Shown here in pieces: positions 1-46,574 of a stretch of 64,000 bases of DNA; the stretch's first letter is position 1, and the number at the start of each line of letters is the position of its first letter. Under the pieces are notes generated by a model. The model saw only the letters and a program-made list of their open reading frames with translations, was not told the origin of the DNA and did no database searches. The position numbers were made by a program, and so were the translations under genes. Origin of the DNA: Embleya hyalina (GTDB lineage Bacteria > Actinomycetota > Actinomycetes > Streptomycetales > Streptomycetaceae); assembly GCF_003967355.1 (NCBI RefSeq), contig NZ_BIFH01000044.1:1-64000 (forward strand), given 5' to 3'.

Positions 1-1
1 G

Positions 2-3000
2 TTCGTGTTTCCGGGGCAGGGGTCGCAGTGGGTGGGGATGGCGGCGGGGTTGTTGGAGTGTTCGCCGGTGTTCGCGGAGGCGGTGGCGGAGTGTGCGGCG
101 GTGATGGATCCGTTGGTGGGGGATTGGTCGCTGTTGGAGGTGTTGCGGGGCGGGTCCGCCGGTGGGTTGGAGCGGGTGGATGTGGTTCAGCCGGTGTTGT
201 TCGCGGTGATGGTGGGTTTGGCGCGGTGGTGGGAGTCGTGTGGGGTGCGGCCGGGTGCGGTGGTCGGGCATTCGCAGGGGGAGATCGCGGCTGCGCATGT
301 GGCGGGTCATCTGTCGTTGGCGGATGCGGTGCGGGTGGTCGTGCTGCGGAGTCGGGCTCTGCTCGGGGTGGCCTCCTCGGGTGGCGGGATGGTGTCGGTC
401 GGGGTGTCTGCCGATCGTGCCCGGGAGTTGGTCGCGGGGGATGATCGGTTGTCGTTGGCGGCGGTGAACGGGCCGACGAGTGTGGTGCTTTCGGGTGATG
501 TCGATGCGCTGGCCGCGGTGGTCGAGGTGTGTGGGCGCGATGGTGTGCGGGCGCGGTGGATTCCGGTGGACTACGCGTCGCATTCGGTGCGGATGGAGGC
601 GGTGCGGGGCGAGGTCGAGCGGCTGTTGGCGGATGTGACGCCGCAGCCGGGTCGCGTGCCGATGTACTCCACCGTGACCGGGGAAGTGGTCGTCGATCCG
701 GCCGAGTTGGGCGGGTCGTACTGGTTCGAGAATCTGCGTCGTACGGTGGAGTTGGAGCGGGCTGTCGGTGCGGCGACGGCGGATGGGCTCACCACGTTCG
801 TCGAGTGCAGTCCGCATCCCGGGTTGGTGGTGCCGCTGGGGGACACCCTGGAGGCGCTGCGGGTGGACGGCGCGGTGTTGGAGACGTTGCGGCGGGGTGA
901 GGGTGGTCCCGATCGGCTGGTCGCCGCGCTCTCGGCGGCGTTCGTGGCGGGCGTCGCGGTGGACTGGGCCGGGATGATCGTGGGCGCGCGGGTGGAGTTG
1001 CCGACCTACGCGTTCCAACGGCGGCGCTACTGGTTGGCGGAGGGGGCGCGGTCGGGGGATCCGGGCGGGCTGGGACTGGCCGCGGTCGGACATCCTCTGC
1101 TGGGTGCGGCGGTACGGCCGGCGCAGGGCACGGGGCTGTTGTTCACCGGGCGGTTGTCGACGGCGACCCACCCGTGGCTCGCGGATCATGTGGTGCTCGG
1201 CTCGACGATCGTGCCGGGCACGGTGTTCGTGGACCTGGCGCTGTGGGCCGGGGCCGAGGCGGCGTGCCCGGTGGTGGACGAACTGACCCTGCACACCCCG
1301 CTGGTGCTGCCGGAGCACGGCGGCGTGCACGTACAGGTGACCGTCGACGGGCCGGACGACGTCGGGGCCCGGGCGGTCGCGGTGTACTCCCGGCCGGAGG
1401 ACGCGCCCGACGACGAGCCGTGGACCCGGCACGCCGTCGGGGTCCTCGTTGCCGACGACGACGCGGGTCCCGACGCGGCTCCCGAGGTGTGGCCGCCGGT
1501 CGGCGCGAAGCCGGTCGAGGTGGCGGACTTCTATCGGCGGCTGGTGGATTCCGGGGTCGACTACGGGCCGGCGTTTCGCGGGATGCGGGCCGCCTGGCGG
1601 CGTGGGGACGAGCTGTTCGCCGATGTGGCGCTGCCGGCCGAGGAGGAGCCCGACGCGCATCGTTTCGGGGTGCATCCGGCGCTGCTCGACGCGGGCGTGC
1701 AGACCCTGCGGGTGGATCCGGGGCAGGTCGACGGGGACGACATCCGAGTGGCCTTCTCCTGGCACGGGGTGCGGCTCTTCGCGGGCGGTGCGACCCGGCT
1801 GCGGGTGTCGTGCGTGCCGTCGGGCGAGGGTGCGGTGTCGCTGCGGGTGGCGGACGAGACCGGACGGGCGGTCGCCGCGATCGAGGCGTTGACGGTGCGG
1901 GCGATCTCGGCCGAGCAGGTGCGGCGGGCCGGCGGTGGGCGGGACGCGCTGTTCCGGCTCGTGTGGCGGGCTTCGGCGGTATCCGTACCGGTGGCGGCGC
2001 CGCGTGTGGCGGTGGTCGGCGAGTGGGATCCGCCCGGTCCGGGCGGACCGGTGGACCGGTATCCGGGCGTCGCCGAACTTGCCGCCCACGAGGGGCCGTT
2101 GCCCGACCTGGTCCTGCTGCCCGTCGGCCGTCCGGATCCCGATGTGCCGTTCTCCGAGCGGCGTATGCGGGATACGACGGCGGAATTGGCGGCCCGGCTG
2201 GAGGCGTTCGTGGGTGACGAACGGCTCGCGGCGGCCCGGGTGGTCGTGGTGACTCGTTCGGCGGTGGTCGTGGATGGCGACACGGGCCTCGGTGATCCGG
2301 CGTCGGCGGCGGTCTGGGGAGTGGTTCGGGCGGCGCAGGCCGGGCATCCGGAGCGGATCGTGCTGGTCGACCTGGACGACGACCCGGCCTCCGCGGCGAT
2401 TGTGGCGGCGGTGGCGTCGGCCGGTGGTGAGCCGCAGTTCGCGGTGCGCGGCGGTCGGGTGTGGGTGCCGGGGTTGGAGCGGGTTCCGGCCTCCGGCGGA
2501 GCGCGATCGGCGCTGGGGACCGGCACGGTGTTGATCGCCGGTGCGGACCGGGCGGTCGGTGCGGGGGTGGCCGAGCATCTGGCCGGTGCGTACGGGGTGG
2601 GTCGGTTCCTGTTGTCGTCCGCGGATCCGTCGGGTGACGGATCCGGTGCGTTGGCCGCCCGGCTGCGTGAGGCGGGCGCCGAGGTCGTGTCGGCGGCCTG
2701 GGACGGGCACGACCCGGGCGTGCTCGCCGCGCTCGTGGCCGAACACCCGCTGGTGGGGGTGGTGGACGCGTCGGGCGGTGCGGACGGCGCGCGGGCCCTG
2801 CACGAGCTGACCGTCGACACGGATCTGGCATTCTTCGTGCTGTTCTCGTCGGCGGCGAACCTGCTCGGTTCGACGGCGCACGCGGCCACGGCCGGGGCGA
2901 GTGCCTTCCTCGACGCGCTGGCCGGACATCGGCGGGCGCACGGGTTGCCCGGGGTGTCGCTGGCCTGCGGGACGGATCCGCTGTCGGGGTTGCCCGACCT

Positions 3001-3658
3001 GTTCGACGAGGCGATGTGCCGGGAGGACGCCGTGTTGGTCTCGGCGTCGACGGACCTCACCGGGCCCGGGTCGACGTCACCGTTGTTGCCCTCTCGAAGC
3101 GCGCGTGGTGCGACCGTCCCCGCCGAGACCCCGGCCGCGACGGACGGCGAGGCGCTGGTCCGGCGTCTGGCGGCGCTGTCCGAGGAGGAGCGCGAGCGCG
3201 AACTGGTCGGCCTGGTGCGGGCCCAGGCCGCGGCGGTGCTCGGGCACGCCGGCACCGGCGAGATCGGACCCGAACGGGCCTTCAAGGAGGTCGGGTTCGA
3301 CTCGCTCACCGCGGTGGAACTGCGCAACCGGCTGATCCGGGGCACCGGGGTCGGCCTGCGCTCCACCCTCGTCTTCGACTTCCCCACGCCGCGCATCCTG
3401 GCCCGCCACCTGAGCGGCCGGCTGGTCGAGGCGGCCTCCCCGGCCGGTGCGCTGCTGGCCGATCTGGACCGATTCGAGGACGAGTTGCACGCGGTCCTCG
3501 GCGAGACGGAGGCCCGCGACCGGCTGGCCGAGCGGCTGCGTCGGCTGCTGGCCCGCTGTACCGCGCCGGACGAGAGCACCCCCGCCGCCGACGTCTCGGA
3601 CGTGCAGTCGGCCACCGACGACGAGTTGTTCTCGCTCGTCGACCAGGGCTTCGAGTGA
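2..3658 (+). CDS. Modular type I PKS, C-terminal end (AT-DH-dead KR-ACP-docking), 5' truncated
   Basis: This is the last module of a polyketide synthase whose start lies left of the window; the open frame runs in from base 2. The order is AT (to about 1036), DH (about 1085-1900), KR (about 2510-3100), ACP (phosphopantetheine serine at 3302 in a GFDSLT motif) and a C-terminal helical docking tail (about 3440-3655). The AT has GHSQG and YASH (572-583), so methylmalonyl-CoA is predicted. The DH keeps its histidine in an HxxxGxxxxP motif and its aspartate in HPALLDAG. The KR is broken: the glycine motif reads AGADRAVG, the segment holding the catalytic lysine is deleted, and the tyrosine is replaced (TAGASAFLDA where active domains have [10 protein letters not shown]). 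The module should therefore leave a beta-ketone, and the DH has no substrate. The tail probably docks onto the next protein, which starts 48 bases downstream. Confidence 0.96.
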   Translation, partial: FVFPGQGSQWVGMAAGLLECSPVFAEAVAECAAVMDPLVGDWSLLEVLRGGSAGGLERVDVVQPVLFAVMVGLARWWESCGVRPGAVVGHSQGEIAAAHVAGHLSLADAVRVVVLRSRALLGVASSGGGMVSVGVSADRARELVAGDDRLSLAAVNGPTSVVLSGDVDALAAVVEVCGRDGVRARWIPVDYASHSVRMEAVRGEVERLLADVTPQPGRVPMYSTVTGEVVVDPAELGGSYWFENLRRTVELERAVGAATADGLTTFVECSPHPGLVVPLGDTLEALRVDGAVLETLRRGEGGPDRLVAALSAAFVAGVAVDWAGMIVGARVELPTYAFQRRRYWLAEGARSGDPGGLGLAAVGHPLLGAAVRPAQGTGLLFTGRLSTATHPWLADHVVLGSTIVPGTVFVDLALWAGAEAACPVVDELTLHTPLVLPEHGGVHVQVTVDGPDDVGARAVAVYSRPEDAPDDEPWTRHAVGVLVADDDAGPDAAPEVWPPVGAKPVEVADFYRRLVDSGVDYGPAFRGMRAAWRRGDELFADVALPAEEEPDAHRFGVHPALLDAGVQTLRVDPGQVDGDDIRVAFSWHGVRLFAGGATRLRVSCVPSGEGAVSLRVADETGRAVAAIEALTVRAISAEQVRRAGGGRDALFRLVWRASAVSVPVAAPRVAVVGEWDPPGPGGPVDRYPGVAELAAHEGPLPDLVLLPVGRPDPDVPFSERRMRDTTAELAARLEAFVGDERLAAARVVVVTRSAVVVDGDTGLGDPASAAVWGVVRAAQAGHPERIVLVDLDDDPASAAIVAAVASAGGEPQFAVRGGRVWVPGLERVPASGGARSALGTGTVLIAGADRAVGAGVAEHLAGAYGVGRFLLSSADPSGDGSGALAARLREAGAEVVSAAWDGHDPGVLAALVAEHPLVGVVDASGGADGARALHELTVDTDLAFFVLFSSAANLLGSTAHAATAGASAFLDALAGHRRAHGLPGVSLACGTDPLSGLPDLFDEAMCREDAVLVSASTDLTGPGSTSPLLPSRSARGATVPAETPAATDGEALVRRLAALSEEERERELVGLVRAQAAAVLGHAGTGEIGPERAFKEVGFDSLTAVELRNRLIRGTGVGLRSTLVFDFPTPRILARHLSGRLVEAASPAGALLADLDRFEDELHAVLGETEARDRLAERLRRLLARCTAPDESTPAADVSDVQSATDDELFSLVDQGFE

Positions 3659-3706
3659 CCCGGCCCATCCACGCATACGACCGTGTCGGCAAGGAGTAGA
3701 GGCAAC

Positions 3707-25891
<22,185 letters not shown>

Positions 25892-25949
25892 CCACCGATC
25901 GCGGGGCTGGGACTCACCCGTCCTCCTGAACAGGCAAGGAGAAGCACCG

Positions 25950-28900: not shown

Positions 28901-31900
28901 GGAACTGGCCCTGGAGACCCCGCTGGCGTTCGGCGAGCGCGGCGGCTGCCAGGTGCAGGTATGGATCGAGGCGGCCGGTCCCGACGAGCGGCGGCGGGCG
29001 ATCACCATCCACTCCAGGCCGGACGACGGCGACGGCGACGAGGGGTGGATCCGCAACGCGGTGGGCACGGTCGCGCCGGTCGAGGACCAGGCGCCCGCCG
29101 ACACCGCCGCCGACGCCGGCCCTTGGCCGCCGGCGGGCGCGACGCCCGTGCCGATCGACGACTTCTACCCGTGGCTGGCCGACAACGGCGTGGCCTACGG
29201 GCCGTGCTTCCGAGCGGTGCGGGCGGTCTGGCGTCGCGGGGAGGAGATCTTCGGCGAGATCGCGCTGCCCGAACAGGTCGGGTACGAGGCCGACCGGTTC
29301 GGTGTGCACCCCGCGCTGATGGACGCCACCCAGCACCTGCTCGGGGTGGCCGCGTTCGCGGACCCGGCGGAGACCGAGGACGGCGGGTTGGCGCTGCCGT
29401 TCTCCTGGCGTGAGGTACGGCTGCACACCCCCGGCGCGGCCTCGGTACGGGCGCGGGTGGTGCGGACCGGGCCGGAGTCGGTGACGCTGAGCCTGGCCGA
29501 CGAGGACGGCCGACCCGTCGCCGAGGTCGAATCGCTGGCCGTGCGGCCGATCTCGGCCGAACGACTGCGCACCTCGACGGCGGGTCGCCGCGACCCGCTG
29601 TACACGCTGCGCTGGACGCCGCTGCCCCGGACATCGGCCGCGCCGGGCACCGGAGCCCCCGCGATCATCGCCGAGTCGGGGTCGGGAGACCCGTTCGCGG
29701 GCCGGCTCGGCGGTACCGTGCATCCCGATCTGACCACGCTCGGCGACGCGCTGGACGCCGGGCTGCCGACACCCGAGGTGGTCGTCCTCGCGTGGCCCAC
29801 GACCCCGGCGGGTCCGCTCGGCGACGTGCCCGACCCGGACGACGTACACGTCGCCGTACACCGGGCGTTGGCGACCGTGCAGACCTGGCTCGGGGACGAG
29901 CGGTTCACCGGCGCCCGCCTCGTCGTGGTCACCCGGGGCGCGGTCGCCGTCGCGGACGAGGAGGTGCGCGACCCGGCCGCCGCCGCGGTCGGCGGCCTGG
30001 TCCGGTCGGCCCAGTCCGAGCACCCGGACCGGCTCGTCCTCGTCGACCTGGACGAGGACGCGGCCTCGCCCGAGGCACTGCTCGCCGCGATCGGCGCGGG
30101 CGAGCCGCAACTCGCGGTACGGGCCGGGGTGGCGTACCTGCCCAGGCTCACCCGGACACCCGCGATCGAACCGAGCGAGCCGCTGTTCGCACCCGACGGT
30201 ACGACCCTGGTGACCGGCGGCACCGGTGCGCTCGGCGCCCTGGTCGCACGGCACCTGGTGGTCGCGCACGGGGTGCGCCGGCTGCTCCTGGTCAGCCGGC
30301 GCGGGATCGCCGCGCCGGGTGCCGGGGCGCTCGCCGCCGAACTCACCGGACTCGGCGCGACGGTCGACGTGGTCGCCTGCGACGTGTCGGACCGGGCCGA
30401 CCTGGCCAAGAAGTTGGCCGCGATCCCGTCCGCACACCCGCTGTCCGCCGTGGTGCACGTCGCGGGTGTCGTCGACGACGGGGTGATCGGCGCACTGACG
30501 CCCGAACGGGTGGACCGGGTGTTGCGGCCCAAGGTCGACGCGGCGCTGCACCTGCACGAGGCGACCCGGCACGCGGACCTCACCGCGTTCGTGCTGTTCT
30601 CCTCGGTGGCCGGCGTGATCGGCAGCCTCGGACAGGCCAACTACGCGGCCGGCAACGCCTTCCTGGACGCCTTCGCGCAGCGCCGACGCGCCCTCGGGCT
30701 GCCCGCGGTGTCCATGGCCTGGGGATTGTGGGCCGAGGAAAGCGGGCTGATGCGCGAGGAGTTCGCCGAAACCGACCGGCAGCGGATCAACCGCAGTGGC
30801 GTTTTGCCGCTGTCCGACGAGCAGGGCCTGGCGCTGTTCGACGCGGCGCTCGCGCACGGCGAGCCGATCCTGGCCCCCGTCCGCCTGGACCCGACCGCGC
30901 TGCGCCGCTTGGAGGACGAACTCCCCGCCATCCTGCGCGGATTGGTGCCCGCATCACGCCGGGACGGCAGCCGATCCGGCGTGGCGGACACCCGCCGACT
31001 GGCCCAGCGCCTCGCCGGTCGCTCCGAGTCGGAACAACTGCGTCTGCTCACCGAGCTGACCCGCGCCCAGGCCGCCGTGGTGCTCGGCCACGCGGGCGCC
31101 GACGCCGTCGCCGCCGATCGGGCGTTCACCGAACTGGGCTTCGACTCGCTCACCGCGCTGGAGATGCGCAACCGGCTCAACACGGTCACCGGCCTGCGAC
31201 TGCCCGCCACGGTGCTGTTCGACTACCCCAACGCCGCCGCGCTGGCCCGCTTCCTGCGCACCGAGACGCTGCGCGTACCGCAGTACGCGCAGGCGGCGGC
31301 GAACGCCCCGGCGAGGGCCCGGGTCTCGGACGAGCCGATCGCGATCGTGGCGATGAGCTGCCGCTACCCGGGCGGCATCGACACACCCGAGGAGCTGTGG
31401 CGCTGCGTCGCCGGCGGCGTGGACCTGACCTCGCCGTTCCCGACCGATCGGGGCTGGGATCTGGGCGCGCTGTACGACCCCGACCCGGACCGCTCCGGGC
31501 GCTGCTACACCCGCGAGGGCTCGTTCATGCGCGAGATCGACCGGTTCGACGCCGAACTGTTCGGGATCTCCCCGCGCGAGGCGCTGGCCATGGACCCGCA
31601 GCAACGGCTGCTCCTGGAGACCTCCTGGGAGGCGTTCGAACGCGCGGGCATCGATCCGAGCTCGCTGCGCGGGAGCAACACGGCGGTGTTCGCGGGCCTG
31701 ATGTACGCGGACTACGCCGCGGGTCGGGTGGGCGACGTCGGCGACGAGTTGGAGGCGTACATCGGCAACGGCAACTCGTTCGGCGTCGCCTCCGGCCGGG
31801 TCGCCTACACGCTGGGCCTGGAGGGCTCGGCGGTGACGGTCGACTCGGCCTGCTCGTCCTCGCTGGTCGCGCTGCACTGGGCGGCGCACGCGCTGCGCAG

Positions 31901-34900
31901 CGGGGAATGTGATCTCGCGCTGGCGGGCGGGGCGACGGTGATGTCCACGCCCAGCGTGTTCGTGGAGTTCGCCCGGCAGCGCGGCCTGGCGCCCGACGGC
32001 CGGTGCAAGTCGTTCGCCGCGGCGGCCGACGGCACCGCGTGGGGCGAGGGCATCGGCATGTTGCTGGTGGAGCGGCTGGCCGACGCGCGCCGCAACGGGC
32101 ATCCGGTGCTCGCGGTGCTGCGGGGTTCGGCGATCAACCAGGACGGCGCCTCCAACGGCCTCACCGCGCCCAACGGCCCGTCGCAACAGCGGGTGATCCG
32201 GCAGGCGTTGGCCAACGCCGGGTTGGCCACGGCGGATGTGGACGCGGTCGAGGCGCACGGCACCGGGACGGTGCTCGGCGACCCGATCGAGGCCCAGGCG
32301 CTGCTGGCCACCTACGGCCGGGACCGGCCGGCGGAACGACCGCTGTGGCTGGGCTCGATCAAGTCGAACTTCGGCCACACCCAGGCGGCGGCCGGGGTGG
32401 CCGGGGTGATCAAGATGGTGATGGCGATGCGGCACGGGATGTTGCCGCCGACGCTGCACGTGGACGAACCCTCGCCGCACGTGGACTGGTCGAGCGGACG
32501 GGTCGAACTGCTCGCCGAGGGCCGGCCGTGGCCCGAGGTGGGCCGGGCCCGCCGGGTGGCGGTGTCCTCGTTCGGGATCAGCGGGACCAACGCGCACGTC
32601 ATCCTCGAACAGGCCGACGAGGAGCCGGAACCCGCTGCCCGGTCCGCGGCCGACGCCGGCGTCGGCGGGGTGCTGCCCTGGGTGCTCTCGGCCCGGACCG
32701 AGGCGGGCGTACGGGCCCAGGCGGCCCGGTTGCGGGACTGGGCCGGGGCCCGGCCCGACGTCGATCCGGCCGACGTGGGCTGGTCGTTGGCCTCGGGACG
32801 GGCCGTGTTCGAGCGGCGCGCCGTGGTGTGGGGCCGGGACGGCGCGGAGTTGACGGCGGGCCTGGACGCGCTGGCGGCGGGGCGGGACGCGGGGGTGCGT
32901 TCCGTGCTCGCCGGCGGCATCGGCGGGTCGGGCGAGCCGGCCGCCGGGCCGGTGTTCGTCTTCCCCGGCCAGGGCTCGCAGTGGGTCGGGATGGCGGCCG
33001 AACTACTGGCCTGCTGCCCGGTGTTCGCGGACTCGGTGGCGGAGTGCGCGGCGGCGATGGATCCGCTGCTGGCCGACTGGGCACTGCTCGACGTGCTCCG
33101 GGACGCGTCCGCCGCGCTGTTGGAGCGGGTGGATGTGATCCAGCCCGTGCTGTTCGCCGTGATGGTCGGCCTGGCCCGCTGGTGGGAGTCGTGCGGGGTG
33201 CGGCCGAGCGCGGTGATCGGACACTCCCAGGGGGAGATCGCCGCCGCGCACGTGGCGGGTTTCCTGTCCCTGGAGGACGCGGTCCGGATCGTGGTGCTGC
33301 GCAGCCGGGCACTGCGTGGGCTGGCGGCCGACGGTGACGGGATGTTGTCGGTGGGCGTGTCCGCCGAGCGTGGCGGGGAACTCGTGGCACGCGGCGAGGG
33401 ATTGTCCCTCGCGGCGGTCAACGGCCCGAGCAGCGTGGTGCTCTCCGGGCCGGTCGAGGGCCTGGCCCCGATCGTGGCCGAGTGCGAGCGGGACGGCGTT
33501 CGGGCGCGGTGGATCCCGGTGGACTACGCCTCGCACTCGGCGCGGATGGACGACGTACGCGAGGTGTTGGCCGAGTCGCTGGCCGGGGTGCGGCCGGGGA
33601 TCGGACGGGTGCCGATGTACTCGACCGTGAGCGGGCTGAAGGTCACCGATCCGGCGGATCTGGGCGGGGAGTACTGGTTCGAAAACCTGCGTCGCACGGT
33701 GCGGTTGGCCACGGCGGTCGGCGCGGCGGCGGCGGACGGGCTGACGGTCTTCGTCGAATGCAGCCCGCATCCCGGCCTGGTGGTGCCGCTCGGGGACACC
33801 CTCGACGCCCTGGGGAGCACGTCCGGCACGGTCGTGGAGACGCTGCGCCGGGGCGAGGGCGGCCCCGAACGCCTGGTCGCGGCACTCGCGGCGGCGTTCG
33901 TGAGCGGCCTGCCGGTCGACTGGGCCGGGCTGTTGCGCCACGACGGGGTCCGGCGCGTGCAACTGCCGACGTACGCCTTCCAGGGCCGCCGGTTCTGGCT
34001 CGAACCGGACATGGGTACGGCGCTGCCCGGCCGCGCGGCATCGGCGCCGGTCGTGGGCGACGCCGAGGACGGCAGGTTGTGGGAGGCGCTGGCGGCGGCG
34101 GGCGCCGAGGACCTCGCGGCCGAACTGGAGGTGGCGGCGGACGCGCCGCTGAGCGACGTGCTGCCGGCGCTGACGTCCTGGCGGGCGCGGCGGCGGGCGG
34201 ACGCGACGGTGCGGTCCTGGCGATACGGGGTGCGGTGGGAGCCGTGGGCGGCGCCGGCCCCCTCCGTCGACGGGGCGGGGCGTCTGCTGCTCGTCGCTCC
34301 GGACGGCGAGGTCGGGGACGTGCTTGCGGGCGCGCTGGCCGAGCGCGGCGCCGAGGTGGTGGTGCTGTCCGCGGCGGGGGAGCGGAGCGCGCTGGCGCGG
34401 CGGCTTGCGGCGATCGGCGAGCAGGGCGTGCTCGCCGGGGTGGTGTCGTTGTCGGCGGTGGGTCGCACCGGTGACGCGGACCCCGTGTCCGCGCTCGCGC
34501 CGGTGCTCACGCTGGTGCAGGCGCTGGGTGACGCCGGGATCGAGGCGCCGCTGTGGGTGCTGACGCGGGGCGCGGTGTCGGTGCTGGGCGAAGAGCCGAC
34601 CAGCCTGGCGGGTGCGGCCGTGCAGGGGCTCGGGCGGGTGGTCGGGCTGGAGCATCCCGGGCGCTGGGGTGGGCTGGTCGATCTGCCGGAGGTGGTGGAC
34701 GGCCGGGTGGCGCAGACGCTGGCGGGGATCCTGGCGGCCGGGACGGGCGGCACCGACCCGGGTGAGGACGAGATCGCGATTCGGCCCCTGGGGGTGTTCG
34801 TCCGGCGGCTGGCGCGGATGGCCGGGCCGGAAGGCGGCGGGACGAGCCGGTGGCGGCCCGGTGCTACGGCGTTGGTCACCGGCGGTACCGGTGCGCTGGG

Positions 34901-36188
34901 CGGGCGGGTCGCGCGGTGGCTGGTCCGGGAAGGCGTCGAGCGGGTGGTGTTGGCCGGGCGGCGTGGACCCGACGCGCCCGACGCGGACCGACTGCGCGAG
35001 GAACTGACGGCCGCCGGGGCCGAGGTGGCGGTGCTCGCCTGTGACCTGGGCGATCGGGACGCGGTGGCCGCGCTGTTGGCGGAGGTACGGGCCGGCGGCC
35101 GGCGGATCGACACCGTCGTACACGCGGCGGGCGCGGTGGTGGTCGGCCCGTTGGCGGGCGGCACCGTCGCGGACCTGGCCGAAGCCTCGGCGGCCAAGGT
35201 GGGCGGCGCGCTGCTCCTGGACGAGCTGCTGCGGGCCGACGAACCCGACACCATGGTGCTGTTCTCCTCCGCCGCCGGGGTGTGGGGCGGCGCGGGTCAG
35301 GGGCCGTACGCGGCGGCCAACGCCTGCCTCGACACGATCGCCGAGCGGCGCCGGGCGCGCGGGCTGCGTACCGTCTCGATCGCGTGGGGGCAGTGGGCCG
35401 GCGGCGGGATGGCCGACGGCGCGGCCGGCGCGCACCTGGACCGGATCGGGGTGCCGGCGATGGACCCGGACCGGGCCCTGGAGGCACTGCGACAGGCCCT
35501 GGACGAGGACCTGACCGCCGTCACGGTGGCCGACGTGGACTGGCCGAGGTTCGCCGCCGGGTACACGGCGGCCCGGCCGCGACCGCTGATCGTGGACCTG
35601 GTGGCGGCGGAGGTCCCGGCGGTGCCCGCCGCCGACGTGCGCGGGGCGGCCGAGTCGGACGGTCCGAGTGTGTGGCGGGCCCGCCTGGCCGAACTGGGCG
35701 CGGCGGAGCGGGAGGCCGAACTGCTCGCGCTGGTCCGCACCGAGGTCGCGGCGCAGTTGGGCCATGCCGATCCGGCCGCGATCGAACCCGAACGGCCCTT
35801 CCGCGACCTCGGGTTCGACTCGCTCGCGGCGGTCGGCCTGCGCAACCGACTCACCGCGACCGTCGGTCTCCGGTTGCCCAGCACGCTGGTCTTCGACCAC
35901 CCGACGGCGGTCGCGCTGGCCGCGCACATCGACGGCGAACTCTTCGGGGAGACCGTCGGGACGGTCCCGATCCTGGCCGAACTGGACCGTCTGGAGGCGG
36001 CCCTGGGCGAACTGGGCGACGACTTCGCCGAACGGGGGAGGGTCGGTGCCCGGCTGGCCGAACTCGTCGTGAAGTGGCGGGAGATCGAGGCCGCAGGCCG
36101 CAAGGCCGAGCCCGAGGGCGGGGATTTCGCGGCGGTGGAGGACGAGGAGATGTTCGACATGCTCGGAAAGGAGTTCGGCATCTCCTGA
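25950..36188 (+). CDS. Two-module type I polyketide synthase (3412 aa)
   Basis: This PKS has an N-terminal docking helix (residues 1-33, [13 protein letters not shown]), then KS-AT-DH-KR-ACP and KS-AT-KR-ACP modules, and a C-terminal docking tail (about 3334-3412). The ATG at 25950 is supported by AAGGAG at 25936-25941, eight bases upstream. Both modules have intact KS cysteines; the second reads DSACSSS rather than DTACSSS. Module details are given separately. It sits 58 bases after the four-module PKS and 85 bases before the terminal PKS, and that second gap holds a perfect hairpin. In leptomycin numbering this protein would set C18=C19, the C20 oxygen that closes the lactone, and the C21 methyl. 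Confidence 0.97.
26048..31260 (+). other. PKS module E: KS-AT(malonyl)-DH-KR-ACP
   Basis: The KS begins near residue 34 of this protein. The AT near 556 has FTGQGVR, GHSLGE and HAFH (about 751), predicting malonyl-CoA; it contains a short Glu-Gly run (27772-27800) where related ATs have a non-repetitive loop. The DH near 918 has [10 protein letters not shown] and [10 protein letters not shown]. The KR near 1416 has [11 protein letters not shown] and ANYAAGN, so it should be active and B-type. The ACP serine is near 1733. An E-alkene without a branch is expected (C18=C19). Confidence 0.9.
31333..35945 (+). other. PKS module F: KS-AT(methylmalonyl)-KR-ACP
   Basis: The KS begins near residue 1795 and the AT near 2334, with GHSQG and YASH (about 2526) for methylmalonyl-CoA. 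There is no DH: the AT runs into a dimerisation/linker segment and the structural half of the KR. The catalytic KR (about 2970) has TGGTGALG, lacks the LDD motif, and has [16 protein letters not shown], which is the A-type tryptophan pattern with glutamine rather than histidine three residues before the tyrosine (A1-like). The ACP serine is near 3290. A retained hydroxyl next to a methyl is expected; this hydroxyl (C20) can close a six-membered lactone. Confidence 0.9.
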
Positions 36189-36192
36189 GCGG

Positions 36193-36213
36193 GGCCGGCG
36201 ACGACCGCCGGCC
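36193..36213 (+). promoter_or_regulatory. Perfect hairpin between two PKS genes
   Basis: GGCCGGCG, a five-base loop and CGCCGGCC form an 8 bp all-matched stem five bases after the stop codon of the two-module PKS. There is no T-tract, and the same operon continues 60 bases later, so a full terminator is unlikely. A partial terminator, a processing or stability element, or chance in GC-rich DNA are all possible. Confidence 0.4.
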
Positions 36214-36273
36214 GCCGGTCCGACGACACACGGCTCGATCGGGTTCGACCAGGAAGAGGACGGACGTACGGAC

Positions 36274-39200
36274 ATGTCGAACGAAGAGCGGCTGCGGCAC
36301 TTCCTCCGGGAGACCGCCACGGATCTGCGCCGCACCAAGCAGCGGCTGCACGAGGTGGAGTCGGCCGCCCGCGAGCCGGTGGCGATCGTGGCGATCGGGT
36401 GCCGCCTGCCGGGCGGCGTACGCTCCGCCGAGGACCTGTGGGAGCTGGTGCGGACCGGGACGGACGCGATCGCCGGCTTCCCGCGCGATCGGGGCTGGGA
36501 TCCGGCGAACGTGTACGCGGGCCTGCCGGGCGGCGAGGGCGGCGTGGGCGGATCCGGCGGGTCGACCACCCGGCAGGGCGGATTCGTCTACGACGCGGCC
36601 GAGTTCGACGCCGAGTTCTTCGGTGTCTCGCCGCACGAGGCGTCGGCGATGGACCCGCAGCAGCGGCTGCTCCTGGAGACCGCGTGGGAGACCTTCGAGC
36701 GGGCAGGCATCGATCCGCTGTCGATGCGGCGCAGCCGAACCGGCGTGTTCGTCGGCGCCGGCGCGCTCGGCTACGGCGGCGGGATGCGCGCGGACAACGC
36801 CGAGATCCAGGCCCATCGGGTCACCGGCGGCTCGATGTCCGTCGTCTCGGGGCGGATCGCCTATACGCTCGGCCTGGAGGGGCCGGCGGTCACCCTCGAC
36901 ACGGCGTGTTCGTCGTCGCTGGTGGCGCTGCACCTGGCGGCGAACGCGCTGCGTGCGGGGGAGTGCGACCTGGCCCTGGCCGGCGGCGTCACGGTGATGG
37001 CCCGGCCGACCGCCTTCGTGGAGTTCTCCAGGCAGGGCGGATTGGCGTCGGACGGCCGCTGCCGCTCGTTCGCGGCGGCGGCGGACGGCACCGGGTGGGG
37101 TGAGGGCGTCGGGCTGCTGCTGGTGGAGCGCTTGTCGGACGCGCGGCGTCGAGGCCATCCCGTACTGGCGGTGCTGCGCGGCTCGGCGGTGAACCAGGAC
37201 GGCGCGTCGAACGGCTTGACCGCGCCGAACGGGCCGTCGCAACAGCGGGTGATTCGGCAGGCACTGGCGGCCGCCGGCCTGTCGGCCGCCGATGTGGACG
37301 CGGTGGAGGCGCACGGGACCGGGACGGTGCTCGGCGACCCGATCGAGGCGCACGCGCTGTTGGCCACCTACGGGCGGGACCGGCCGGCGGATCGGCCGCT
37401 GTGGTTGGGGTCGGTGAAGTCCAACATCGGGCACACCCAGTCCGCGGCCGGGGTCGCCGGGGTGATCAAGATGGTGATGGCCCTGCGGCACGGGCTGTTG
37501 CCGCGCACGTTGCACGTGGACCGGCCGTCGCCGCACGTGGACTGGACCGCGGGACGGGTCGAGCTGCTGATCGACGAGGTGCCGTGGCCCTCGGGCGTTC
37601 GGGTGCGTCGGGCGGGTGTGTCGTCGTTCGGGATCAGCGGGACGAACGCGCATGTGGTCCTGGAGGAGGCGCCGGCGATCGAGGGGGTTTCGGAGGATGT
37701 GGTCGAACCCGCCCCGGGTGTCGGTGGGTTGATTCCGTGGGTGGTGTCGGCGCGCTCTCCGGAGGCGTTGCGCGCGCAGGCGGCACGGTTGCGGGAGTCG
37801 GGGGTCGAGGACGCGGCGGACGTGGGCCGATCCTTGGTGACGGGACGGGCGTTGCTGGAGCATCGGGCGGTGGTGCTGGGCCGGGACGCCGCCGAGTCGG
37901 GGCGCGGGTTGGCCGCGTTGGCGGCGGGGGCCCCGGGTGCGGTCGAGCCGTCCGAGGCGGGAACTCCGGTCGTGGTGACCGGGCATGTGCCGCGAGCGGG
38001 CGGTGTGGGTGGTCGGGTCGCCGGGCGGGGTGCGGTGGTGTTCGCCGGGCAGGGTGGCCGGTTGCCCGGGATCGGGCGGGAACTGTACGCGGCTTTCCCG
38101 GTGTTCGCCCGGGCGCTGGACGAGGTGTGTGCGGCGTTCGACGCGGTGGTGCCGTTCTCGGTCCGGGACGTGTTGCTCGGCGCGGACGGGACGGGGCCGC
38201 TCGGTGTCGATGCCGAGGACACCGGGGTGGCCCAGCCGGTGCTGTTCGCGTTCGAGGTGGCGTTGTACCGGGTGTGGAGTTCGCTGGGGTCGGTCCCGGA
38301 CTTCGTGGTCGGGCACTCGCTGGGTGGCATCGTCGCGGCGCATGTGGCGGGGGTGTTCTCGCTCGCGGACGCGGTGGCGTTCGTCGCGGCCCGGGCCCGG
38401 TTGATGAGCGCGTTGCCGGGCGGGGGCGCGATGCTCGCGGTGGGGGCGAGCGAGGCGCAGGTCACCGCGCTGTCGGGTGGGCTTCCGGTGTCGATCGCGG
38501 CGGTCAACGGCCCGGCGAGTGTGGTGGTTTCGGGCGCGCTGACGGCCGTGGACGAGGTGGCGGCGCGGTGCGCGGCGCGCAGTTGGCGCAGCTCGCGATT
38601 GCGGGTCTCGCACGCTTTCCATTCGGTGCTGATGGAGCCGATGCTGGCCGAACTGCGGGACGCGTTGGGCCGGTTGTCGTTCGGGGCACCGGAGATCGGG
38701 TTGGTGTCGGACACCACCGGGCGGGTGGTGTCCGCCGAGGAGGTGGGTGATCCGGAGTACTGGGTGCGGCATGTGCGCCGAGCGGTGCGCTTCGCGGACG
38801 CGGTCGGCACGCTGCGTGAGCGGGGTGTGGCCACCTTCGTGGAACTGGGCCCGGACGCGGCGCTGACCGCGATGGTGGCCGAGTGCACGGCGGGCGAGGG
38901 CGAGGTGCTGGGAGTGCCGGCCCAGCGGCGCGGCCGACCGGCCGTGGCGACCCTGGCCGGCGCGCTGGCCACGGCGTTCGTGCGGGGGCTGCCGGTGGAC
39001 TGGGTCGGGGCGCTCGGCGGCCCGGGCGGACGGCGGGTGGAGCTGCCGACCTACGCGTTCCGGGGGCGGCGCTACTGGCTGGAGCCGGCGAAGGAATCGG
39101 TGACGCGGGCCGGTCCGGATCCGGTGGACGGTCCCCTGTGGGATGCGGTCGAGCGGGCCGGGGCGGACGAACTGGCCACGATCCTGGGCGTGTCCCAGGA

Positions 39201-42090
39201 CGCGCCGCTGCGCGAGGTGGTGCCGGCGCTGTCGTCCTGGCGGGCCCGGCGGCGGGTGGACGCGACGGCCGCGTCGTGGCGCTACGCGGTGCGGTGGGAG
39301 CCGTGGGCGGGCGGGTCGCCCGACACGGCCGCGTTGTCCGGGCGTTGGCTGCTCGTGCACCCGACCGCGAGCGATCCGGCGGACGCGCTGGCCCGGGAGA
39401 TGACCGAGCGCGGCGCGGAGGTGGTGCGGGTCGGGGAGGAGGGCATCGGGTCGCACCTCGGGTCCGAACCCGTCGCGGGGGTGGTGTCGTTGATCGGCCT
39501 CGGCTTCGGCTCGGGTCCCGGTTCCGGCTCGGGTTCCGGCCCGGGCTCCGGTCCCGGTTCCGGCTCGGGCTCGGGCTCGGGTTCCGGCCCCGGCTCGGGT
39601 CCCGGCTCGGGCTCGGGTTCCGGTTCGGGCTCCGGTTCCGGTTCCGGTTCCGGCTCGGGTTCCGGCCCCGGCTCGGGTTCCGGCTCGGGCTCGGGTTCCG
39701 GCTCGGGCTCGGGCTCGGGCTCCGGTTCGGGTGTGGGTGAGGAGTGCGCCGGCCTCGTGGGCGCCGTGGCGGCGATGGGTGAACTGCTCGCGGACTTGCG
39801 CCGGTTCGAGGTCGCCGCCCCGCTGTGGTGTGTGACCCGGGCGGCCGTGTCGGTCCTGGGCGAGGACCTGGACAGTCCGGTGGGCGCCGGCCTGTGGGGC
39901 AGGGGCCTGGTGGCGAGCCTGGAGCAACCCGGGTGCTGGGGCGGCCTGGTCGACCTGCCGGCCGCCGCGGACGCCCGCGCGTTGGGGGCGCTGGCCGCGA
40001 TCCTGGCCGGGACTTCGGCCGAGGACCAGTTCGCCATCCGCCCGCTGGGCGTGTTCACCCGGCGGCTGACCCCGCTGCCGGCCGAGGAGTCGAGCCGGGT
40101 GGTGCGTACCCGCGAGGCGGCGCTGATCACCGGCGGCACCGGCGTCCTGGGCGCGCACGCCGCCCGCTGGCTGGTCGCGCACGGCACCGAACGGGTGATC
40201 CTGCTCGGCCGACGCGGCGCGCGGGCACCCGGATTCGACGCGCTGCGGGCCGACCTCGAGGCGGCCGGCGCCGAGGTGGTGCCGATCGCCTGCGACCTGA
40301 CCGCGCCCGACGCGGCGGAGCGGCTGCGTGCCGCGTTGCCCGCGACGGGTGCGCGGATCCGTACCGTCGTGCACGCGGCGGGCGTGCCCGGTTCGCCCAC
40401 CGCGACCGACGCCGACGCGGTGGCGGACACCGTCACCGCCAAAGTCGCCGGCGCGCTGGCCCTGGACGCGCTCTTCGGGGCGGACCGGGCCCTGGACGCG
40501 TTCGTGCTCTACTCCTCCGGCGCGGGGGTGTGGGGCGGCGCCGGACAGGGCGCCTACGCGGCGGCCAACGCCTTCCTGGACGCGCTCGCCGTGCGCCGTC
40601 GGCAACGCGGCCTGCCCGCCACGGCGATCGCGTGGGGGCCGTGGGCGGCCGGCGGGATGGCGGACGGCGAGGGCGAACGGCTCCTGGCCCGGGTCGGCGT
40701 ACGGGCGATGGACCCGGCCGCGGCGCTGACCGCACTGGGCCGGGCCCTGGTCGAGGACCTCACCTGCGTGACGGTGGCCGACCTGGACCGGCCCCGGTTC
40801 GCGGCGGGCTACACCTCTGCCCGCCCCCGGCCGCTGATCGCCGACCTGATCGACGCGGAGCCGCCGACCGAGGCCGCCCCGCCGACCCGACCCGGCGGGG
40901 TGTGGGACCCGACGGTGACCCGCTCGCCCGCCCGGCTCGCCGCCGAACTGCTCGACCTGGTCCGCGCCGAGGTCGCCGCGCAACTCGGGCACGCCGGCGT
41001 CGAGGCGATCGAACCCGAGCGGCCGTTCCGCGACCTCGGCTTCGACTCCTTGGCCGCCGTCGGCCTGCGCAACCGCGTCGCCGAGGCCACCGGCGTACAC
41101 CTGGCAGGCACCCTGATCTACGACCACGAGACGCCCTCGGCCCTGGCCGCACACCTGGCCGACGCCCTGCGCGACGGTGTGCCCGAGACCCGCCCGGCGC
41201 GGGCGGAGGCGGGCCGCGCCGAGGACTCCGACGAAATGCTCGGCACGGTCTACCGCAAGCTGGCCCTGCTCGGCCGAATGGACGACGCGGAATCGCTCCT
41301 GGTCGGCGCGGCCGGCCTGCGGCAGACCTTCGAGGACCCGAACCGGCTCCCGCGGACACCCGGCTTCACCCGGCTCGCGCGCGGCCCGGCCCGGCCCCGG
41401 GTGATCTGCTTCCCGCCGTTCGCGCCGGTCGAGGGCGCCATCCAGTTCGGCCGGCTGGCGGGCGCGTTCGAGGGCCGGCACGACACGGCGGTGCTGACCG
41501 TACCGGGCTTCCGGCCCGGTGAGCCGCTGGCCGCCTCGCTGGACGTGCTGCTCGACCTGCTGGCCGAGGCCACACTGCGGTGCGCCGGGGACGACCCGTT
41601 CGCCGTGCTCGGCTACTCCTCCAGCGGCTGGCTCGCACAGGGCGTGGCCACCCGTCTGGAGGCGGCCGGCCGGCCGCCCGCCGGGGTCGTACTGCTCGAC
41701 ACCTACCTGCCCGCCACGATGTCGCGGCGGATGCGCAAGGCGATGAATTACGAGGTGATCGTGCGGCGGCAGGCGTTCACCGCGCTCGACTACATCGGGC
41801 TGACCGCGATCGGCACCTACCGCCGGATGTTCCGGGGCTGGGAGCCCAAGCCCGGCTCCGCGCCGACGCTCGTGGTGCGGCCCTCGCGGTGCGTCCCGGG
41901 CTCGCCGGAGGAGCCGATGACCGGCGAGGACTGGCGTTCCACCTGGCCGCACGAGCACACCGCCGCCGAGGTGGAGGGCGACCACTGCACGATGATCGGC
42001 GAACACGCGGAGCAGACCGGGGCGGTGGTGCGCGCGTGGCTGGCCGGTGACAGGGCGGTTTCGAACGACACGAGGGAAGGCACGGCATGA
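36274..42090 (+). CDS. Terminal PKS: KS-AT(malonyl)-KR-ACP-thioesterase (1938 aa)
   Basis: This is the chain-terminating PKS. Domains are an N-terminal docking helix (1-33), KS from 35, AT near 586 (FAGQGGR, GHSLGG, HAFH near 780, malonyl-CoA), a linker and structural KR half containing a Gly-Ser tract (1079-1153), catalytic KR near 1282, ACP serine near 1592 and TE from about 1708. The KR has TGGTGVLG and [16 protein letters not shown] without LDD, so it is A1-like. There is no DH, so the chain should leave as a 3-hydroxy acyl thioester closing on the 5-hydroxyl as a delta-lactone. A glycine-rich insert replaces the usual acidic loop near the KS start (36511-36570). The ATG has only a weak upstream purine run (36251-36260). 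Its stop overlaps the next start (ATGA), implying translational coupling. Confidence 0.97.
39508..39732 (+). repeat. 75-codon Gly-Ser/Gly-Pro tract inside the terminal PKS
   Basis: Residues 1079-1153 strictly alternate glycine with serine, or with proline at six places. Glycine codons are GGC or GGT and serine codons TCG or TCC, so the DNA is an imperfect six-base repeat. It lies in the structural (non-catalytic) half of the KR, between a VVSLIGLGF strand and [11 protein letters not shown]. The matching place in the preceding module has a loop of roughly 10-15 ordinary residues. The frame stays open on both sides and the flanking protein is normal, so this is an in-frame expansion, probably a flexible loop. 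Confidence 0.95.
41396..42030 (+). other. C-terminal thioesterase domain with GYSSSG nucleophile motif
   Basis: This alpha/beta-hydrolase domain (from about residue 1708) begins [10 protein letters not shown] and has the nucleophile elbow GYSSSGW (residues 1780-1786), an aspartate in VVLLDTYLP, and a histidine in EGDHCTMI. Related PKS thioesterases usually read GxSxG, so the last glycine of the elbow is replaced by serine here (S1784); the catalytic serine should be S1782. The triad looks complete. Given the 5-hydroxyl from the preceding module, release as a six-membered lactone is inferred. Confidence 0.85.
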
Positions 42091-42623
42091 CCGACCCGCG
42101 ATATTCGCGATACCTGCATCCCGGCTCCGTCGACCATCTCGACGCGCGGTTCCTGGTACACCGGGCCGCGATCCAGGATCTCGTCGCCGCGTACAGCCTG
42201 AGCTACGACGCGGGCGACTACGACGGACTCGGCGACCTGTTCACCGAGGACGCGACGTATGCGTTCACTCCCGCCCCCGAGGGTTTTCCGCCCTCGGTGT
42301 CCGGCCGGGACAAGATCGTCGCGGCCATGGCCGCGCTGCGCGAGCACAACCTGCGCACCCGGGGCGGCCACCAGCGGCACTTCGTGACCAACACGGTGAT
42401 CACCCGACTCGACGGCGACACCGCCGAGGTGCGATCGCTGATGGCGGTCGCCTTCGCCCATCCGCAGGACGGCCGGCAGGAGTTCACCCGCAGCGGGGTG
42501 TACGCCGACGTGCTGGCCCGGCAGGGCAGCCGGTGGCGGATCGCCGACCGGCACCTGTGGTTGGCCGAGTTGCCGGCGCCGCGTCCCGCCGACCCGCCCG
42601 TTCCGGAGGAGACCCGGCCATGA
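42087..42623 (+). CDS. SnoaL/BaiE-like NTF2-fold protein, candidate lactone dehydratase
   Basis: This 178-residue protein belongs to the SnoaL_4/NTF2-like fold, which includes scytalone dehydratase and the bile acid 7-alpha-dehydratase BaiE. Visible features are an N-terminal helix ([19 protein letters not shown]) with Tyr36 and Asp41 five residues apart, as in the catalytic Tyr/Asp pair of BaiE, then histidines 95 and 98 in HQRHFVTN, and the strand [15 protein letters not shown] near the end. It starts inside the stop codon of the terminal PKS (ATGA at 42087-42090) and its own stop overlaps the P450 start, so the three genes are translationally coupled. Because the last PKS module lacks a DH and the inferred product is an unsaturated lactone, dehydration of the 3-hydroxy lactone is a reasonable role. 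Cyclase, isomerase or hydroxylase roles known for other SnoaL-like proteins cannot be excluded. Confidence 0.85.
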
Positions 42624-43798
42624 TTCCCGTGCTCGAACTGGTCCAGATCTCCACACTCCCCGACGCCGAGCGGGAACTGGAGCACCTGGCCCGGCGATAC
42701 CCGATCATCCGCACCCGACAGGTCGGCGGCATCGAGGCGTGGACCGTGCTCGGCGCCGGGCTGACCCGGCAACTCCTCGGTGACCCGCGGCTGTCCAACG
42801 ACCTGCATACCCACGCGCCGCACGCGGCCCAGTCCGCCGACGGTCCGACCGTGCTGTTCGAGCAGGACAACCCGGACCACGCGCGCTACCGCCGCCTGGT
42901 CGGCGCCGCGTTCGCCTCGCGGGCCGTGCGCGACCTGGAACCGCGAATCGTCGACATCGCGCGCACACTGCTCGACCGACTGCCGGCCGAGGGCGGCACG
43001 GTGGACATCGTCGAGGCGTTCGCCAATCCCTTCCCCCTGGAGGTGATCTGCGAACTGCTCGGCGTGCCGATAGCGGACCGCGAGGTGTTCCGCACCCGCG
43101 TGGAGAACATGGACTCGCCCTCGACGGCGGTACGCCGGGCGGCGATGGACGCGTTCGTCGCCTACTGCGCCAACCTCGTCGACGCCAAGCGCGCCGAGCC
43201 GACCGAGGACCTGCTGAGCGAGCTGGTGCAGGCCGAACTCGACGACGGATCGCGGCTGTCGGCCAACGAACTGATCGGCTTCGGCTCCGTGCTGCTGTTC
43301 GCGGGCCACGTCACCACGGCCTACCTGATCGCCGCCGCGCTGTACGAACTCATCACCCACAAGGCCCAATTGTCCGCGCTCCGGGCCGACCCGACGCTCG
43401 TCGAGGGCACCGTCGAGGAGGCGCTGCGCTTTCGCGGCTCGTTGTTGTCCACCACGAACCGGGTGGCGCTGACCGACCTGGAGATCGGCGGCGTCGTCGT
43501 GCGCCGAGGCGACCTGGTCCGCTTCCTGCTCTCCGCCGCCAACCGCGACCCGGCGATCCGCGAGGATCCGCATACCTTCGACATCACCCGCTCCACCACG
43601 GCCCACCTGGGCTTCGGCCACGGCCCCCACTTCTGCCTCGGCCAACGCCTGGCCCGCCAGGAGATCAAGGTGGCCCTCACCGAAATCGTCACCCGCTTCA
43701 CGACCCTCGAACTGGCGGTCCCGGCGGAAAAGCTGCGCTGGCGCGCCTCGGACTTCCTGCGCGGCCTCGCCGAACTACCCCTGACGTACGCCCCGTGA
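42620..43798 (+). CDS. Cytochrome P450, PKS tailoring enzyme
   Basis: This soluble bacterial P450 has 392 residues. The I-helix motif is AGHVTT (228-233), the K-helix ExxR is EALR (267-270), and the heme-binding loop FGHGPHFCLG (332-341) has the ligand cysteine at 339. The ATG at 42620 overlaps the preceding stop (ATGA) and has GGAGGAG at 42605-42611; a longer in-frame reading from 42047 would overlap the whole upstream gene and is rejected. The acid that normally precedes the I-helix threonine pair (AGxE/DTT) is valine here. In the leptomycin family the starter methyl is oxidised to the C1 carboxylic acid, and a P450 beside the PKS genes is the expected catalyst. That assignment is by context. 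Electron-transfer partners are not encoded nearby. Confidence 0.93.
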   Translation: MIPVLELVQISTLPDAERELEHLARRYPIIRTRQVGGIEAWTVLGAGLTRQLLGDPRLSNDLHTHAPHAAQSADGPTVLFEQDNPDHARYRRLVGAAFASRAVRDLEPRIVDIARTLLDRLPAEGGTVDIVEAFANPFPLEVICELLGVPIADREVFRTRVENMDSPSTAVRRAAMDAFVAYCANLVDAKRAEPTEDLLSELVQAELDDGSRLSANELIGFGSVLLFAGHVTTAYLIAAALYELITHKAQLSALRADPTLVEGTVEEALRFRGSLLSTTNRVALTDLEIGGVVVRRGDLVRFLLSAANRDPAIREDPHTFDITRSTTAHLGFGHGPHFCLGQRLARQEIKVALTEIVTRFTTLELAVPAEKLRWRASDFLRGLAELPLTYAP

Positions 43799-43814
43799 CC
43801 ACCGACGAGGAAGG

Positions 43815-43841
43815 GCGGACCGGCCCCGGCCGCCGGTCCGC
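43815..43841 (+). terminator. Strong hairpin after the P450 gene, likely end of the PKS operon
   Basis: GCGGACCGGC, a seven-base loop and GCCGGTCCGC form a perfect 10 bp stem starting 17 bases after the P450 stop. There is no T-run, which is usual for actinobacterial terminators. Its position after the last tailoring gene and before a separately started TetR gene supports a terminator role. Confidence 0.6.
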
Positions 43842-46522: not shown

Positions 46523-46574
46523 CCCGGCTCCCGCCGCGACAAGCCCCGACCCGGCTCCCGTCGGGACAGGGCTC

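What the first reader, a model, noticed from the sequence alone, without database searches (positions are those of the whole stretch)
2..43798. PKS domain order reproduces the leptomycin-type chain from C8 to the terminal lactone
Seen: module order keto/Me, DH-KR/Me, DH-KR/H, DH-ER-KR/Me, DH-deadKR/atypical AT, DH-KR/H, KR/Me, KR/H, TE. Known: leptomycin-type nuclear export inhibitors carry an 8-ketone, C9 Me, C10=C11(Me), C12=C13, C14 methylene, C15 Me, C16=C17(ethyl or Me), C18=C19, then a 5-methyl-5,6-dihydropyran-2-one. Seven of eight modules agree in both oxidation level and branch. Inference: this is a leptomycin/kazusamycin/anguinomycin-family cluster whose first modules lie to the left.
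Basis: partly seen in the sequence, partly recalled or inferred. Interest (0 to 1): 0.8.

Follow-up and report, generated by a model that had tools for sequence, protein, structure and literature searches.

The report
Leptomycin-type polyketide assembly line
This stretch holds the last two thirds of a bacterial enzyme assembly line that very probably makes leptomycin-type molecules, known blockers of protein export from the nucleus, and a conserved broken part in it suggests that one bond of the molecule is made in an unexpected way.

Summary
The window starts at a contig end and carries modules 4 (cut) to 11 plus the thioesterase of a modular PKS. The missing front lies on two other contigs of the same genome: KSQ-AT(malonyl)-ACP, M1 DH-KR, M2 DH-ER-KR, M3 DH-KR and the KS of M4, as leptomycin C1-C7 needs. 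Two further genomes hold the whole line colinearly; 12 of 12 KS and 12 of 12 ACP domains match best at the same position. A same-genus genome keeps both flanks joined at a deletion scar. Embleya australiensis, probably a congener, is a published leptomycin/kazusamycin producer. So: a new member of a known kind. Two details go further. (1) KR8 has lost catalytic Lys, Tyr and Asn in 4 of 4 clusters, so C16=C17, the only Z chain alkene of leptomycin (recalled), should not come from module 8 alone; I propose that modules 8-9 work like a type B dehydrating bimodule. (2) The only own non-PKS genes found beside the PKS in all five clusters checked are an NTF2/SnoaL-like gene and a P450; the former is a candidate for the C22-C23 dehydration, as M11 has no DH.

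The parts
2..3658 (+). LepA-like PKS, 3' end only: module 4 AT (2-958, YASH), DH (1091-1921), KR remnant (about 2156-2971, no catalytic Tyr), ACP (3215-3412); reading frame runs off the contig end
3683..25891 (+). LepB-like PKS, 7402 aa, modules 5-8
3809..8965 (+). module 5: KS-AT(YASH)-DH-KR(DD motif)-ACP
9077..14212 (+). module 6: KS-AT(HAFH)-DH-KR-ACP
14303..20425 (+). module 7: KS-AT(YASH)-DH-ER-KR-ACP
20522..25618 (+). module 8: KS-AT(YSSH, 22106-23050)-DH (23216-24049)-degenerate KR (24650-25144)-ACP; positions of catalytic K/S/Y/N read R/A/H/D
25950..36188 (+). LepC-like PKS, 3412 aa, modules 9 (KS-AT HAFH-DH-KR-ACP, 26049-31250) and 10 (KS-AT YASH-KR without DD motif-ACP, 31332-35930)
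36274..42090 (+). LepD-like PKS, 1938 aa, module 11 (KS-AT HAFH-KR without DD motif-ACP, 36373-41157) and thioesterase (41398-42018)
42087..42623 (+). SnoaL_4/NTF2-like protein, 178 aa, start overlaps the PKS stop (ATGA); candidate dehydratase
42620..43798 (+). cytochrome P450, 392 aa (LepE-like position, recalled), start overlaps the SnoaL stop (ATGA); candidate C1 oxidase

Best explanation
Shown: the window carries the 3' two thirds of a cis-AT PKS of a loading and 11 extension modules whose 5' third lies in pieces on contigs C26 and C72; domain order, extender motifs and position-by-position orthology identify one family of assembly lines, whole in G004 and G077 and in part in G005 and G006. 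Inferred from established PKS logic: malonyl is loaded and decarboxylated by KSQ to acetate; M1-M4 (LepA-like) build C3-C10 with C2=C3, C4 methylene, C6 hydroxyl and the C8 ketone (dead KR4); M5-M8 (LepB-like) build C11-C18; M9-M10 (LepC-like) C19-C22; M11 (LepD-like) C23-C24; the TE closes the delta-lactone; the P450 oxidises the C1 methyl to the acid. This is a leptomycin-type pathway (about 0.93). Inferred with less certainty: KR8 does not work, so the chain leaves module 8 as the C16 ketone, and KR9/DH9 reduce and dehydrate twice, so that the C16=C17 (Z), C18=C19 (E) diene arises across modules 8-9 (about 0.35 to 0.4); and the SnoaL-like protein helps the elimination that makes C22=C23 of the lactone (about 0.35).
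For: Domain order and motifs. C72 is one open frame over its 11,374 bases, AT2 to KS4, and its two AT stretches are 95% and 89% identical to window 1-900, which explains the assembly break. KS and ACP best matches at the same module position, 12 of 12 each in G004 and in G077. In same-genus G002 the window flank and the C26 flank lie side by side with remnants of TE and SnoaL between them. SnoaL and P450 behind the TE gene in own, G004, G077, G005 and G006/G065. Of 32 own flank ORFs that passed a codon filter, 18 match G002, none G004, G005 or G006 and one G077 (33% identity); for G005 and G006 only one short locus each was searched. The flanks of G004 and G077 share nothing with each other beyond one 30% match. 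KR8 lacks K, Y and N in 4 of 4 clusters; 30 of 30 KR domains of modules 1-3, 5-7 and 9-11 keep K, S, Y and N. KR4 and KR8 are the least conserved KRs: own to relatives 51-62% and 54-58%, other KRs 63-80%. Published leptomycin producer in Embleya (PMC13152386, passages).
Against: No authentic LepA-D sequence was compared and no product seen. The order C26-C72-C44 is inferred: contig ends do not overlap and the scar in G002 says nothing about C72. DH3 keeps its catalytic residues in 3 of 3 genomes although leptomycin keeps the C6 hydroxyl. DH8 of the own line keeps H, D and H and only 3 of 4 DH8 are eroded. AT best matches are in the same position for only 7 of 12 (G004) and 9 of 12 (G077), which I read as gene conversion between ATs; DH1 against G077 is also off. 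The module 9 idea rests on the absence of KR8, a recalled product structure and two residue signatures that may be mere ancestry. One KR-DH pair would have to make one Z and one E bond, which the hangtaimycin authors counted against an iterative module in their case (PMC8456789). I know of no SnoaL-like enzyme shown to do the lactone dehydration; its best profile match is a protein of unknown function (Rv3472) and others are dioxygenase beta subunits; ActVI-ORFA, the highest TM-score among the 50 fold matches shown, was reported to direct flux (PMC11315284, passages); the model is middling (mean pLDDT 61.7).
Confidence: 0.9

Rival explanations
1. The line makes a 16-oxo (16-keto) relative of leptomycin: KR8 is dead and nothing replaces it, so the C16 ketone stays in the product of this and the related clusters.
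For: KR8 lacks catalytic residues in 4 of 4 clusters and DH8 is eroded in 3 of 4; plain colinearity predicts a ketone.
Against: The leptomycin-type products that I know (recalled) carry the 16Z-alkene; an Embleya strain whose cluster has the organisation of the leptomycin cluster makes ordinary leptomycins and kazusamycins (PMC13152386). The KR8 of that strain was not seen.
Confidence: 0.1
2. Ketoreduction at C16 is done by another enzyme acting in trans on the module 8 carrier protein (a KR of another module or an enzyme of the host genome), not by module 9.
For: KR8 lacks catalytic residues; cross-module action of an enoylreductase is documented in the azalomycin F PKS (PMC9899208, abstract).
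Against: No stand-alone reductase was found to travel with the cluster: own flank ORFs do not recur beside the line in other genomes, and the flanks of G004 and G077 share none either. A host enzyme cannot be excluded.
Confidence: 0.25
3. A phoslactomycin/fostriecin-type pathway, which also ends in an unsaturated delta-lactone.
For: The TE has 54-58% relatives in G233, G375, G108 and G301; three of these were read and look phoslactomycin-like to me (recalled).
Against: The three read (G233, G108, G301; not G375) have other module orders, AT-ACP loading where the start was seen (G233, G301) and several one-module proteins, and no SnoaL match; the window line fits leptomycin module by module.
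Confidence: 0.01
4. The three contig pieces belong to different gene clusters of this PKS-rich genome and only look like one line.
For: 88 matches to the KS family in the genome, fatty-acid type included; the contigs end in similar AT sequences without exact overlap, so joins are ambiguous.
Against: The loading KS and KS1-KS4 on C26 and C72 have position-matched best hits in two intact relatives; C26 and C44 flanks adjoin in G002; C72 starts inside an AT2 of 95% identity to AT4 and ends before an AT.
Confidence: 0.03

Closest known systems
Leptomycin gene cluster (US7288396B2; Hu, Reid and Gramajo 2005; neither read, known here through citations in PMC13152386 and PMC4979870)
   Same: Predicted chain, starter, branching and oxidation levels; four PKS genes with a P450 behind them (gene split and P450 position recalled).
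   Different: Sequence not available here, so identity, the state of its KR8 and DH3 and the presence of a SnoaL gene are unknown to me.
Leptomycin/kazusamycin cluster of Embleya australiensis MST-111070 (PMC13152386, passages)
   Same: Probably the same genus; producer of leptomycins A/B and kazusamycins A/B; antiSMASH region at 6.91-7.08 Mb of a 7.1 Mb chromosome.
   Different: Another genome (four replicons); its sequence was not held, so no direct comparison.
Colinear PKSs in Streptomyces griseocarneus 132 (G004), G077, S. rubellomurinus ATCC 31215 (G006, probably also G065) and Streptomyces sp. UNOC14_S4 (G005)
   Same: Whole line in G004 and G077, parts in G006 and G005; TE 75-77% identical; SnoaL and P450 behind the TE.
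   Different: Protein identity to the own domains 51-90%; other flanking genes.
Type B dehydrating bimodules of trans-AT PKSs (PMC8456789, passages)
   Same: Two neighbouring modules, split between proteins, where the second module's DH makes two eliminations and a 2E,4Z-diene results.
   Different: Described as a feature of trans-AT PKSs, with a KR in the first module; here cis-AT and KR8 degenerate.

Membership tests
leptomycin-type PKS | Acetate-yielding KSQ-AT(malonyl)-ACP loading module | tested here: met
   C26 (L002): active-site Cys to Gln in 3 of 3 genomes, AT motif HAFH, domains
leptomycin-type PKS | Eleven extension modules with Me,Me,Me,Me,Me,H,Me,Et/Me,H,Me,H branches | tested here: met
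   AT motifs; AT8 is YSSH, ethyl or methyl not decided
leptomycin-type PKS | Oxidation levels of M1, M2, M4-M7, M9, M10 | tested here: met
leptomycin-type PKS | M3 leaves a hydroxyl at C6 | tested here: inconclusive
   KR3 intact, but DH3 also keeps its H and D in 3 of 3
leptomycin-type PKS | C16=C17 (Z) in the product | not testable with these tools
   No product data; KR8 lacks catalytic residues in 4 of 4 clusters. A working KR8 is what plain colinearity expects, not a feature known to me to define the family
leptomycin-type PKS | Unsaturated delta-lactone released by a TE | tested here: inconclusive
   TE present, no DH in M11, so the double bond must be made off-line
leptomycin-type PKS | P450 gene behind the last PKS gene | tested here: met
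   42620-43798, one small gene between; LepE position recalled
leptomycin-type PKS | High sequence identity to authentic LepA-D | not testable with these tools
   Patent sequence and E. australiensis genome not held
type B dehydrating bimodule | Second module's DH performs two eliminations giving a 2E,4Z-diene | not testable with these tools
   Only the domain pattern and the recalled product structure point to it
type B dehydrating bimodule | trans-AT setting with a KR in the first module | tested here: not met
   cis-AT modules, KR8 degenerate; hence 'works like', not 'is'
phoslactomycin/fostriecin-type PKS | Short line (about seven extension modules, recalled) with AT-ACP loading | tested here: not met
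   KSQ loading, 11 extension modules

The most novel reading that the evidence does not exclude
In leptomycin assembly lines modules 8 and 9 form a cis-AT counterpart of the type B dehydrating bimodule: module 8 elongates but cannot reduce, and the single KR9-DH9 pair on the next protein reduces and dehydrates at both C16 and C18, setting the (16Z,18E)-diene in one place; and an NTF2/SnoaL-like enzyme that travels with the thioesterase makes the C22=C23 bond that gives the lactone its reactivity.
Probability: 0.3. Interest if true: 0.65.

Novelty: new member of a known kind. Interest (0 to 1): 0.45.

Why it matters
Leptomycin B is a standard reagent for blocking CRM1-dependent nuclear export. 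A further cluster in a rare genus is of modest value by itself, but the comparison of five clusters reduces the shared gene set to the PKS plus two genes and shows that the one Z-alkene of the chain sits exactly where the module has a degenerate ketoreductase. That makes two steps, the Z-alkene and the lactone double bond, directly testable with a few inactivating point mutants and one gene deletion.

Tried and rejected
A frameshift in the P450 was suspected first, because the frame 42047-43798 matches P450 only in its second half; rejected, because the first part of that stretch is a separate SnoaL gene in another frame and the P450 can begin at ATG 42620. A phoslactomycin-type pathway was considered and rejected. 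A TE search in plasmid records found 27 records, all below 60% identity; the eight rows shown were at most 40.3%. Searches of the paper library (listings, and passages of six papers that mention leptomycin) showed no description of the leptomycin modules; Hu et al. 2005 and Palaniappan et al. 2008 are not held, so I cannot say whether the KR8 oddity is already in print. The S. hainanensis contigs (G007) were read for domains but are too broken to say which line they form. The window genome could not be named: Embleya is inferred from G002, whose 8 contigs with one of 7,005,287 bases fit the description of E. scabrispora NF3 in PMC13152386. Family-wide searches scored only the 6 or 8 best first-look candidates per genome, so absences there are not proof.
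Full report
What is there. The window is bases 1-64000 of contig C44 of a 12.05 Mb genome in 78 contigs. Base 1 is the contig end and lies at the start of an AT domain. Four PKS genes follow: the 3' end of one (2-3658), then 7402, 3412 and 1938 aa. Behind the thioesterase, with ATGA overlaps, come a SnoaL_4 gene and a P450 gene.

The missing front. KS and DH searches of the own genome pointed to C26 and C72, which end just before an AT. C26 carries KSQ-AT-ACP, module 1 (KS-AT-DH-KR-ACP) and a KS; C72 is 11,374 bases of one open frame: AT-DH-ER-KR-ACP, KS-AT-DH-KR-ACP, KS. Its two AT stretches are 95% and 89% identical to window 1-900, so the assembly probably breaks on that repeat; contig ends do not overlap exactly. 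Put in order, the loading and 11 extension modules predict: acetate starter; C2=C3; C4 methylene; C6 oxygen; C8 ketone; C10=C11; C12=C13; C14 methylene; C16 (see below); C18=C19; C20 and C22 oxygens; methyl, or methyl/ethyl, at C3, C5, C7, C9, C11, C15, C17, C21. That is leptomycin (structure recalled).

Independent support. A TE search of named genomes found five loci, three of them 75-76% identical. In 394 family genomes 10 passed E 1e-55, three of them, own included, at 76% identity or more (6 candidates scored per genome). G004 (S. griseocarneus 132) and G077 hold the entire line in four genes with the same split. Own KS and ACP domains have their best match at the same position in 12 of 12 cases each in both genomes; DH 9 of 9 (G004) and 8 of 9 (G077); KR 9 of 11 in both, the exceptions being KR4 and KR8; AT 7 of 12 and 9 of 12. 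The same-genus genome G002 lacks the cluster: its DNA runs from the window's right flank through scraps of SnoaL and TE into the C26 flank, joining it about 260 bases before the probable start of the lepA-like gene. This points to loss in that lineage and shows that the two flanks are neighbours there; it does not speak to C72. PMC13152386 (passages) reports leptomycins and kazusamycins, and a cluster 92% identical to the patented one, in Embleya australiensis. PMC7142508 (passages) reports anguinomycin A and leptomycin A from Streptomyces palmae; its genome was not identified here.

The shared gene set. Of 32 own flank ORFs that passed a codon filter (some may not be genes), 18 match G002 at 81-100%; none matches around the line in G004, one matches in G077 (33%, an ABC transporter), and none the single short locus searched for each of G005 and G006. 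The flanks of G004 and G077 share only one 30% match. SnoaL and P450 follow the TE in all five. In 394 family genomes the SnoaL protein was found in four: own, G077, G065 and the scrap in G002 (8 candidates scored per genome). S. hainanensis has a 49% relative behind its 55% TE; G233, G108 and G301, whose TEs are 54-58% identical, have none.

Module 8. At the catalytic positions Lys, Ser, Tyr, Asn KR8 reads R-A-H-D (own), T-S-Q-D (G004), A-S-H-A (G077), V-S-Q-A (G006); 30 of 30 KRs of modules 1-3, 5-7 and 9-11 read K-S-Y-N (own KR4 was too short for that table and was dropped from it, but has no Tyr). DH8 is eroded in three of four; the own DH8 keeps H, D and H but has Leu for Phe in the YGPxF motif. 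KR8 and KR4 are the least conserved KRs. So all four lines are predicted to lack ketoreduction in module 8. Leptomycin has its only Z chain alkene at just this place (recalled). After module 9 the thioester would be a 2E,4Z-dienoyl, the outcome described for type B dehydrating bimodules, where one DH makes two eliminations (PMC8456789, passages); cross-module action of a reductive domain is documented in azalomycin F (PMC9899208, abstract). Against it, the hangtaimycin authors thought it unlikely that one KR-DH set makes both an E and a Z bond in their iterative alternative. Module 9 has two signatures not seen elsewhere in my set: a Gln before the DH His (4 of 55 distinct DHs, all module 9) and a one-residue insertion in the KR after the catalytic part (3 of 61 KRs that could be classed, all module 9; 17 of 78 could not be classed; the fourth, G006, was seen). 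The set is not an independent sample, and the signatures may reflect function or just descent. The mechanism is my proposal, not shown.

The lactone double bond. Module 11 has no DH. A review (PMC4979870, passages) says that chemistry similar to the malonylation-elimination of phoslactomycin occurs for leptomycin. The SnoaL-like protein has an NTF2-like fold in a middling model (mean pLDDT 61.7). By E-value its first Foldseek match is a designed protein and the second Rv3472, of unknown function; among the 50 rows shown ActVI-ORFA has the best TM-scores (0.58/0.75), and LinA dehydrochlorinase, a putative scytalone dehydratase and dioxygenase beta subunits are also there. By sequence profile the best match is Rv3472 (3.3e-11); the putative scytalone dehydratase follows at 2.4e-5. 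Invariant D41, D44, H95, R97 and H98 (6 sequences) are candidate catalytic residues. I think it promotes this elimination; it could act elsewhere or direct flux, as reported for ActVI-ORFA (PMC11315284, passages).

Verdict. The finding is a new member of a known kind, in a genus already known for it (genus inferred); the KR8 puzzle and the SnoaL gene are what a specialist may not expect.

Noticed in passing
L058 11031-15209 and 15193-17500 (G002:C1 about 216-222 kb), against window 41858-49075 and L002 10300 onward: Deletion scar in a same-genus genome: the leptomycin-type PKS is gone, scraps of the TE and SnoaL remain between conserved flanks, so the cluster was probably lost in that lineage.
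   Followed up: yes
window 2-958, L001 4396-5298 and 10606-11374: AT2 and AT3 DNA is 95% and 89% identical to AT4, and AT domains do not match relatives by position as KS and ACP do: a sign of gene conversion between ATs inside the genome.
   Followed up: partly
window 53721-56714 (-), 56872-58464 (+): Large HTH plus NACHT protein near a protein kinase with a PQQ-type beta-propeller match; not part of the cluster.
   Followed up: no
window 43885-46522: TetR regulator (below-cut-off MftR-like match) and amidohydrolase directly behind the P450; shared with G002 at 91-92% but not found near the line in the other genomes searched, so probably flank, though a regulator role is possible.
   Followed up: partly
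genome contigs C45, C18, C28, C32: Further large type I PKS frames (up to 11,701 aa on C45); 88 matches to the KS family in the genome, fatty-acid type included.
   Followed up: no
L006 (S. hainanensis) 3204-4573: A more distant TE (55%) is also followed by a SnoaL relative (47-49%), so the TE-SnoaL pair may be older than the leptomycin-type line; the PKS there is in fragments.
   Followed up: partly
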